The notes beneath the pieces were generated by a model. That model did no database searches. It was not told the origin of the DNA and saw only the letters and a program-made list of their open reading frames with translations. Of a stretch of 22,733 nucleotides of DNA, positions 19,806 to 22,183 are shown in pieces (positions within the stretch are counted from its first letter, which is position 1; every line of letters begins with the position of its first letter). The stretch is from assembly GCA_034696485.1 (NCBI GenBank), contig JAQIWT010000349.1:1-22733 (forward strand), given 5' to 3'. The position numbers and the translations under genes were made by a program. The DNA is from Isohypsibius dastychi. Lineage: Eukaryota > Tardigrada > Eutardigrada > Parachela > Isohypsibiidae.

Positions 19806-22183
19806 ATGAAGAAAATTGTTCCCGTGCGATACTTGTCATCATTGGTATCACAGCTGAGATTTGGACAAGTGGAAGGAAAGAAAATGGCAACTTTGGAAAC
19901 TCTGAATTTTGAAAATCTGGCTTTGAGAGCTCTGCCGCTGGATCCGGAAGAAAATGATAACCGCTCTCGCCAGGTGCCCGGAGCTTGTTTTTCTCGTGTT
20001 CAGCCAACTCCCGTGAAAAATCCGAAAATGGTGGCATATTCGGCGGATGCGCTGGCTTTACTTGGGTTACCGGAATCTGAATGTAAACGAGGAGATATGG
20101 CTCACTATTTTTCCGGAAACGTCCTCTTGCCGGGCTCTGAACCGGCAGCCCATTGTTATTGCGGTCATCAGTTTGGATATTTCTCCGGACAGCTGGGAGA
20201 TGGGGCGACCATGTAAGAAAATTTGCTGGTTTTTATTCCCGAACAGCTGAGTTAACTTACTTTCAGCCTAAACAAATAAGATTTCGCGGGAAAATGATAC
20301 GATAATAATACGATTCGGTCATTCCGATTCTTCTACAGGTACTTGGGAGAAGTGGTTAATCAGAAGGGAGAAAGATGGGAGCTGCAGCTCAAGGGAGCTG
20401 GAAAAACGCCCTATTCGCGTTCTGCAGATGGGAGAAAAGTTCTGCGTTCCAGCATTCGTGAATTTCTTTGTAGCGAGGTGAGAATCATGTTAATTTTATG
20501 TGATTCCATATTCGGTGAATTTTTTAATTTTTCGGTGAATTTTTCAAAGCAAAAAGTAACCTTTTAAACAACTTTCATGTGCATTATTTGTCACAGGTGA
20601 ACAATAATCTCGGAGTACCCACGACGAGAGCCGGAACGGTTGTCACTTCGGATTCGCGAGTGACAAGGGATATATTCTACACCGGAAACAATATTCAGGA
20701 GCGTTGCTCGATTGTTTCCCGAATTGCGCCGACATTTATCCGATTTGGCTCGTTCGAGATCTTCAAAGGAACCGATCCGGCTACGGGAAGAAAGGGGCCC
20801 AGTCACGGGCGTAACGATATTCTTGTACAGCTGACGAGTTACGTTATTCAGACATTTTATCCCGAGGTATGTTCTTTGATCGCATTTTAAGACTTTGTGC
20901 AATCTCACTTGGTTGCTTGAGCATGAACTTATTTTTTGGTTTAGATATGGAACGCCCATAAAGAGGATAGAGAAAGTCGTGTACTGGAGTTTTTCAGAGA
21001 GGTCTGTCGTCGAACCGCCATTCTAGTTGCTCGCTGGCAATGTGTAGGTTTCTGTCATGGGGTACTCAACAGTGACAATATGAGTATTGTTGGTGTAACC
21101 ATCGATTACGGCCCATATGGATTCATGGATCGATATGATCCCGACTTCATTTGCAATTCTTCCGACGATGGCGGAAGATACACCTATTCGAAACAACCAG
21201 AAATCTGCCGATGGAATTGTATGAAACTGGCCGAAGCACTACAACCTATCCTTCCGGTTGCGAAATCGAAGCCTGTCCTGGAAGAATTTGACCAGGAGTT
21301 TGAGAAGGAGTATTGGAGATTGATGTCTGCTAAGTTCGGATTCGCGAAAGAAATGCCAGATGATAGGTACTAATTTGTGTTCTTGTTTTGAGTAAAGGTC
21401 ACTCTGCTGATTTGTGACCTTTCATGTAGGCAACTCATCAAAGAATTCCTGGACGTGATGTATCAAACGGGTGCGGACTTCACGAATTGTTTCCGAGTTC
21501 TGAGCAAGTATTCTGCTGGTGGTCATTCGGAAGTTCTGAATTATATGCTTCAGCAATGCTGTTCAGCCAAGGAATACAAAAAGGCATTTTCACCTACGAT
21601 GGACCCTCGGCAGTTCGAGATGCTGATGATGCTGCAGTCCCAGAATCCCGAGCTCTTAAGCATGTTGGGGAAGAAAGCTGATTCTCTTGGCCGGGAGATG
21701 GAACTTATGAAGAAGGCGGGAGAACTGAAGAATTTGACTGCTGAAAAGAAAACAATAAATGACCGGAAGTTGTGGGATGGATGGCTTATAAAATACCGTG
21801 AAAGAATCGAGCAGGAGTTCGGCGCTAAACCCGGCGAGGATGTGATGAAATCCAGAAGAGCATCAATGAATAAAGCTAATCCTCGAATCGTTCTCCGAAA
21901 CTTCATCGCCCAGAACGCAGTTGAGCACGCTGAACGGGGGGATTATAGCGAAGTGCGAAGGGTCTTGTGGGCATTCCGAGATCCTTACGATGAGGATGTC
22001 GATTATTCTTACATGGCTGCATTTGACGAAACAGTTGAGGGAGATGAAGCCAACGTCTCGATTCCGGATGATGACCAGCAAAGCTCAAATCCTTCATGTT
22101 CAAAGAAGCCGAAACATTGTAGAATTGTTTATGATGCGAAACCACCGGAAGGTTCAGTCATTCAAGTTAGCTGATCCTCGTAG
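19806..22183 (+). CDS. SELENOO: Selenoprotein O (protein AMPylase), 663 aa, TGA read as selenocysteine
   Basis: Exons: 19806-20212, 20339-20477, 20597-20866, 20945-21366 and 21430-22183; GT..AG introns and all phases agree. SelO is a mitochondrial pseudokinase-fold enzyme that transfers AMP from ATP to Ser/Thr/Tyr of target proteins. The first 26 residues ([20 protein letters not shown]) are basic and hydroxylated, like a mitochondrial presequence. Motifs: [19 protein letters not shown] (~118-135), [19 protein letters not shown] (~151-169, ATP-binding Lys), [11 protein letters not shown] (~172-182), [19 protein letters not shown] (Asp ~316, Asn ~317), [11 protein letters not shown] (Asp ~326) and KPPEGSV near the end. 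The frame gives 660 codons ending QVS, then TGA (22172-22174), TCC, TCG and TAG (22181-22183). Sec-containing SelO ends in Sec-Ser-Ser, so TGA is very probably Sec at 661. A SECIS candidate lies 75 bases downstream. If TGA were a stop, the protein would lack three residues. Confidence 0.9.

What the first reader, a model, noticed from the sequence alone, without database searches (positions are those of the whole stretch)
22139..22183. SelO frame ends in TGA-TCC-TCG-TAG: a selenocysteine codon that standard gene finders would call stop
The spliced frame gives 660 residues ending ...[11 protein letters not shown], then TGA, Ser, Ser, TAG. Sec-containing SelO proteins are known to end in Sec-Ser-Ser, with Sec third from the end. 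Length (663) and position (661) match the family (human SelO is 669 aa). If the genome is a nematode, where few selenoproteins are known, this would be notable.
Basis: partly seen in the sequence, partly recalled or inferred. Interest (0 to 1): 0.85.

Follow-up and report, generated by a model that had tools for sequence, protein, structure and literature searches.

The report
Selenocysteine-ending SelO gene in a tardigrade
The last few codons of this enzyme gene, from what looks like a tardigrade (water bear), contain a "stop" codon that is almost certainly read as the rare amino acid selenocysteine, as in many other animals, so the gene is ordinary in kind but shows that gene models of this protein are cut short.

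Summary
Confirmed. The spliced SelO frame (five exons, 19806-22183) gives 660 residues, TGA at codon 661 (22172-22174), Ser, Ser, TAG. The TGA is very likely a selenocysteine codon. Of the 120 listed SelO relatives, 115 end in Val-Thr or Val-Ser, one codon before it; all 120 listed relatives of a paralogue end Cys-Ser-Ser at the matching place. The only SECIS_1 match at E <= 5 in the 30.4 Mb assembly lies in this 3'UTR, though below Rfam's cut-off. The assembly also holds a tRNA-Sec above cut-off, a selenophosphate synthetase with TGA at its active site and a thioredoxin-glutathione reductase ending GC-TGA-G. It is not a nematode: the closest listed SelO proteins are tardigrade. eEFSec, SepSecS, PSTK and SBP2 were not found, but the assembly is incomplete (6 of 9 CCT/Hsp60 genes). 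Possibly newer: the tRNA-Sec gene has a 14-nt anticodon-loop insertion like a tRNA intron, reported among eukaryotes, in what I read, only for Daphnia; that contig's tardigrade origin is likely, not proven.

The parts
19806..20212 (+). SelO exon 1; the start [13 protein letters not shown]... could be a mitochondrial presequence
   Evidence: PF02696 match at 19980-20210; presequence by eye only
20339..20477 (+). SelO exon 2
20597..20866 (+). SelO exon 3
20945..21366 (+). SelO exon 4, with [15 protein letters not shown] and FICN motifs
21430..22183 (+). SelO exon 5, through TGA-TCC-TCG-TAG
22172..22174 (+). TGA proposed to be read as selenocysteine (codon 661)
   Evidence: aligned with the Cys of Cys-Ser-Ser in Cys-type SelO proteins
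22175..22183 (+). Ser-Ser tail and true stop TAG
   Evidence: 122 of the 240 listed relatives end CSS, namely 2 of 120 in the SelO set and 120 of 120 in the SelO2 set
22249..22311 (+). SECIS candidate (ATGA 22259-22262, AA in the apical loop, TGAT 22298-22301)
   Evidence: Rfam SECIS_1 26.2 bits, below the gathering score of 35; only match in the assembly at E <= 5; structural scan; position check
22449..22454 (+). AATAAA, possible polyadenylation signal downstream of the SECIS candidate

Best explanation
The window ends with a tardigrade SELENOO (SelO) gene. Its mRNA carries an in-frame UGA three codons before the true stop; a 3'UTR SECIS hairpin recruits the selenocysteine machinery, tRNA-Sec inserts Sec at 661, and the protein ends Sec-Ser-Ser. 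Shown here: the frame, the position, the family alignment, a SECIS-like hairpin, and in the same assembly a tRNA-Sec and two more genes with TGA at known Sec sites. Inferred: actual Sec insertion, mitochondrial location and function. From passages read, the tail Sec of human SelO is needed for its NADase activity but not for AMPylation, and in SelO a disulphide between Cys272 and Cys476 regulates activity; that these two correspond to the FICN cysteine and the tail is my inference.
For: Open 663-codon frame. 115 of 120 listed SelO relatives end VT (108) or VS (7), one codon before the site, 2 end CSS, 3 other. 120 of 120 listed SelO2 relatives end CSS, and so does the paralogue at C985, whose best hits are Ramazzottius and Paramacrobiotus. 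SECIS_1 26.2 bits at 22249-22311, the only match at E <= 5 in 30.4 Mb, with 133 of 697 first-look candidates scored. Own structural scan: a candidate in each of three 550-nt 3'UTRs after TGA genes, none in the two after Cys-type SelO; background 10 candidates at the SelO energy or better in 173,738 strand-bases, about 0.03 expected per 550 nt. tRNA-Sec 66.7 bits, cut-off 47. SPS with FTELKG-TGA-GCKIP and TGR ending GC-TGA-G-TAA. Literature passages: PMC13391479, PMC8097203.
Against: The Rfam SECIS score is below the curated cut-off (26.2 against 35), and the 91-nt stretch folds no better than shuffles (z -0.35; 71 of 200 shuffles at least as good). eEFSec, SepSecS, PSTK, an SBP2-like L7Ae domain and glutathione peroxidase were not found. 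Rfam finds no SECIS in the SPS2 and TGR stretches, and the TGR candidate appears only under a rule widened after it had been seen (none, one). The tRNA-Sec contig has 1 CCGGAAGT in 50 kb where the window has 13 in 22.7 kb and could belong to another animal. No expression or peptide evidence.
Confidence: 0.95

Rival explanations
1. The TGA is a genuine stop, and Ser-Ser-TAG downstream is a relic of a recent Sec loss in this lineage.
For: eEFSec, SepSecS, PSTK and SBP2 not found; SECIS score below cut-off and no unusual folding energy.
Against: Intact TCC-TCG-TAG tail and SECIS core; two other genes with intact Sec sites; tRNA-Sec above cut-off; assembly incomplete.
Confidence: 0.04
2. The TGA is read through with another amino acid without Sec machinery.
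For: Non-Sec read-through of UGA in some animal SPS1 genes is known (recalled, not looked up here).
Against: tRNA-Sec and a SECIS-like hairpin are present; three families carry TGA exactly at their Sec sites.
Confidence: 0.01

Closest known systems
SELENOO / SelO of animals, Sec type (human C667, called selenocysteine-serine-serine tail, in PMC13391479)
   Same: PF02696 pseudokinase with [10 protein letters not shown], HGVxNxDN, DYGPxGF and FICN motifs; Sec third from the end followed by Ser-Ser; SECIS candidate in the 3'UTR
   Different: Val-Ser rather than the commoner Val-Thr before the site (7 and 108 of 120 listed relatives); otherwise nothing unusual seen
SelO2 / YdiU-like SelO, Cys type (C985 in this assembly; Ramazzottius and Paramacrobiotus hits)
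   Same: Same family, same Ser-Ser tail, Cys at the Sec position
   Different: Cys in place of Sec; Pro in place of the FICN cysteine in 117 of 120 listed relatives
Intron-containing tRNA-Sec of Daphnia pulex (PMC5330540, passages and section 14 read)
   Same: Short insertion in the anticodon loop next to the anticodon
   Different: 14 nt here against 25 and 16 nt; one gene above cut-off here; presumed tardigrade, contig origin not proven

Membership tests
SelO (PF02696) | profile match above cut-off | tested here: met
   three matches on C349 over the cut-off, 249.1, 55.7 and 30.9 bits against 22.8
SelO (PF02696) | conserved pseudokinase motifs | tested here: met
   [32 protein letters not shown]; aligned to solved YdiU/SelO chains, 4 distinct sequences
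SelO, Sec type | TGA third codon from the end followed by Ser-Ser-stop | tested here: met
SelO | AMPylase or NADase activity | not testable with these tools
   needs purified protein
eukaryotic selenoprotein gene | SECIS in the 3'UTR | tested here: inconclusive
   26.2 bits, below gathering 35, so the curated test is not met; but the only match in the assembly at E <= 5 and supported by the structural scan with background; folding energy not unusual
eukaryotic selenoprotein gene | tRNA-Sec in the genome | tested here: met
   66.7 bits, cut-off 47; two weaker matches are tRNA-Arg and tRNA-Leu; contig origin likely but not proven
eukaryotic selenoprotein gene | eEFSec in the genome | tested here: inconclusive
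eukaryotic selenoprotein gene | SepSecS, PSTK, SBP2 in the genome | tested here: inconclusive
   none found; the one L7Ae-fold match reads by eye as ribosomal L7a
eukaryotic selenoprotein gene | SPS2 in the genome | tested here: met
   C1117: four TIGR00476 exon matches, best 47.5 bits, none over the whole-protein cut-off of 125; in-frame TGA where Selenide, water dikinase 1 (3fd5) has Thr
eukaryotic selenoprotein gene | Sec shown in the protein | not testable with these tools
   needs 75Se labelling or mass spectrometry

The most novel reading that the evidence does not exclude
In this tardigrade the one tRNA-Sec gene found above cut-off carries a 14-nt intron between positions 37 and 38, so every selenoprotein, SelO included, would depend on tRNA splicing: a second eukaryotic case, in another phylum, after Daphnia.
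Probability: 0.6. Interest if true: 0.45.

Novelty: new member of a known kind. Interest (0 to 1): 0.33.

Why it matters
Tardigrade SelO gene models appear to be cut or misjoined at the TGA: the listed Paramacrobiotus protein ends one codon before it, and the Hypsibius model leaves the family sequence just before the site and runs on into a PF05721 (PhyH, name recalled) domain. The assembly shows three genes with TGA at known Sec sites (SelO, SPS2, TGR). That tardigrades use selenocysteine is not new: PMC2768748 (passages read) says so from sequence clusters, with 1 SECIS-1 and 6 SECIS-2 pattern hits in Hypsibius ESTs. Losses of selenoproteins are known in insects and nematodes, and one survey describes Sec-type SelO as generally conserved except in ecdysozoans (PMC5330540 and PMC3828610, passages read). 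A Sec-type SelO in an ecdysozoan outside those groups helps to place the losses; it is not alone, since the Priapulus, Limulus and Centruroides models also stop at Val-Thr.

Tried and rejected
Nematode origin: rejected. C333 SelO as a third tardigrade copy: set aside, since its GC is higher (0.48-0.49) and its 4-mer distance to the window was the largest of the contigs compared (0.25-0.28), and it has no intron; but some short stretches (C4, C68, C1215) lay as far from the window, so this is not proof. TIGR00475 and eEFSec hits: read by eye as eIF2-gamma (C248), eIF5B (C382) and other translation or GTP-binding proteins, not eEFSec. A loose first SECIS scan was unspecific (21 of 60 background windows hit) and was replaced by stricter ones: (AA at 9-14 nt) found candidates for SelO and SPS2 but none for TGR, with 32 background candidates in 158,222 strand-bases; one search widened the distance to 16 nt because of the TGR candidate already seen, so the TGR result is partly post hoc. 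The background was mixed coding and non-coding DNA of both strands, partly from C333, not matched 3'UTRs. Rfam found no SECIS in the SPS2 or TGR stretches. A protein search with a GPCR from the tRNA-Sec contig scored no relative at E <= 0.001; shared repeats (none) and codon usage (not discriminating) did not settle that contig's origin. The plain ARAGORN run found no tRNA there; with introns allowed it calls a tRNA-Gly(tcc) with a 14-nt intron; the Rfam tRNA-Sec model fits, and placing the intron two bases later leaves the loop CTTCAAA with anticodon TCA. CCT subunit names, the expected totals (9 CCT/Hsp60 genes, at least 5 L7Ae-fold genes) and the SECIS consensus are recalled.

Full report
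What was checked. The window is G000:C349, in an unnamed 30.4 Mb assembly of 1648 contigs. Splicing its last 2.4 kb by GT-AG gives one open SelO frame of 660 residues, then TGA, Ser, Ser, TAG.

Which animal. The SelO protein matches Paramacrobiotus metropolitanus at 73% and Hypsibius exemplaris at 62%, both tardigrades in the NCBI taxonomy. A second SelO gene at C985, which groups with the window by 4-mer composition, has Ramazzottius varieornatus (62%) and Paramacrobiotus (63%) as its two best hits. The animal is a tardigrade or something close to one, not a nematode.

Why the TGA is Sec. In the family the residue is Cys or Sec. All 120 listed relatives of the C985 paralogue (of 7,993 scored) end Cys-Ser-Ser. 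Of the 120 listed relatives of the window SelO, 108 end Val-Thr and 7 Val-Ser, exactly one codon before the site; 2 end Cys-Ser-Ser; 3 differ (the fused Hypsibius model, one ending Ile-Thr, one partial). That the 115 stop there because gene models end at a TGA is inference; I had no DNA for them. An alignment of 12 chosen sequences places the window's TGA on the Cys of the Cys-type proteins. The paralogue at C985 has TGC there, then two Ser codons and a stop.

SECIS. Rfam SECIS_1 matches 22249-22311, 75 to 137 bases after the TGA, at 26.2 bits, below the curated 35. In the whole assembly it is the only match at E <= 5 (E 0.09; 133 of 697 first-look candidates scored). It has ATGA, AA in the apical loop and TGAT, as eukaryotic SECIS elements do (consensus recalled). 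The stretch does not fold better than shuffles (z -0.35, 71 of 200 as good). A structural scan with one rule finds a candidate in each of three 550-nt 3'UTRs after TGA genes (SelO -8.9, SPS2 -10.4, TGR -14.5 kcal/mol) and none in two after Cys-type SelO. Background: 56 candidates in 173,738 strand-bases, 10 at -8.9 or better, 7 at -10.4 or better, 2 at -13.7 or better. For SelO that is about 0.03 expected per 550 nt. The rule had been widened after the TGR candidate was seen; under the narrower rule TGR had none.

Sec machinery and other selenoproteins. tRNA-Sec is at C8:58213-58312, 66.7 bits against a cut-off of 47; two weaker matches are ordinary tRNAs (53 of 2,224 first-look candidates scored). 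A selenophosphate synthetase at C1117 reads FTELKG-TGA-GCKIP, aligned to FTELKGTGCKVP of Selenide, water dikinase 1. A thioredoxin-glutathione reductase at C191, with a glutaredoxin-like stretch upstream by eye, ends GC-TGA-G-TAA, aligned to the C-terminus of solved thioredoxin glutathione reductases. Both were found exon by exon, no single exon over the whole-protein cut-off. Not found: SepSecS, eEFSec, PSTK, SBP2 (only one L7Ae-fold match, read as ribosomal L7a), glutathione peroxidase. As a yardstick, 6 of 9 expected CCT/Hsp60 genes were found (7 loci, one gene twice; names and expectation recalled), and 1 of at least 5 L7Ae-fold genes that all eukaryotes should have (recalled). Absence is therefore weak evidence, though four machinery genes missing together is a point against.

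tRNA-Sec insertion. The tRNA-Sec gene has 14 extra bases in the anticodon loop after CTTCAA, where eukaryotic tRNA introns sit. PMC5330540 (passages and section 14 read) reports introns in eukaryotic tRNA-Sec only for Daphnia pulex; the listings, of which I opened only this paper, showed no other animal case in title or abstract. The contig has the window's GC, and its five 10-kb stretches lie nearer the window (0.14-0.18) than C333 (0.24-0.28) in 4-mer distance; it carries a rhodopsin-type GPCR. Against: it has 1 CCGGAAGT in 50 kb, against 13 in the window and 6 in 10 kb of C985; three other short stretches of unknown origin (C20, C200, C723) also had none. Another animal cannot be excluded.

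Function. SelO is a pseudokinase AMPylase (PMC8097203, passages read). [quoted passage not shown] The disulphide between Cys272 and Cys476 regulates activity; I infer that these correspond to the FICN cysteine and the tail. The window protein keeps FICN, as do 117 of 120 listed SelO relatives (3 without the motif); of 120 listed SelO2 relatives 117 have Pro there, 2 Ala and 1 did not match.

Noticed in passing
G000:C8:58213-58312 (L007 1501-1600, minus strand): tRNA-Sec gene with a 14-nt anticodon-loop insertion resembling a canonical tRNA intron; a UGAA in it could pair with UUCA of the anticodon loop, by eye; the minimum-energy fold pairs the loop otherwise.
   Followed up: partly
L037, L038 (G000:C8:20001-40000): ORFs resembling a Polinton-like element (capsid-like, integrase-like, ATPase-like, DNA polymerase-like, by eye); the capsid-like ORF had no Pfam match. 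Described only.
   Followed up: no
L042 and L043 (C1006, C1270): A chaperonin CCT gene (CCT7 by recall) present in two copies, 90% and then 75% identical in DNA.
   Followed up: partly
SelO2 proteins P0121-P0240: Pro replaces the FICN cysteine in 117 of 120 although all keep the Cys-Ser-Ser tail; redox pairing of the tail may be lost in SelO2.
   Followed up: partly
window 17236-18580: Fructosamine kinase pieces (PF03881, 6.2e-26 for 17891-18199; the wider extent by eye); a GCGAAGC-rich stretch near 18217-18262 follows and the gene may be broken.
   Followed up: no
L001, L024, L025 (C333): Intronless Cys-type SelO on a contig of different composition, possibly another organism in the assembly.
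   Followed up: partly
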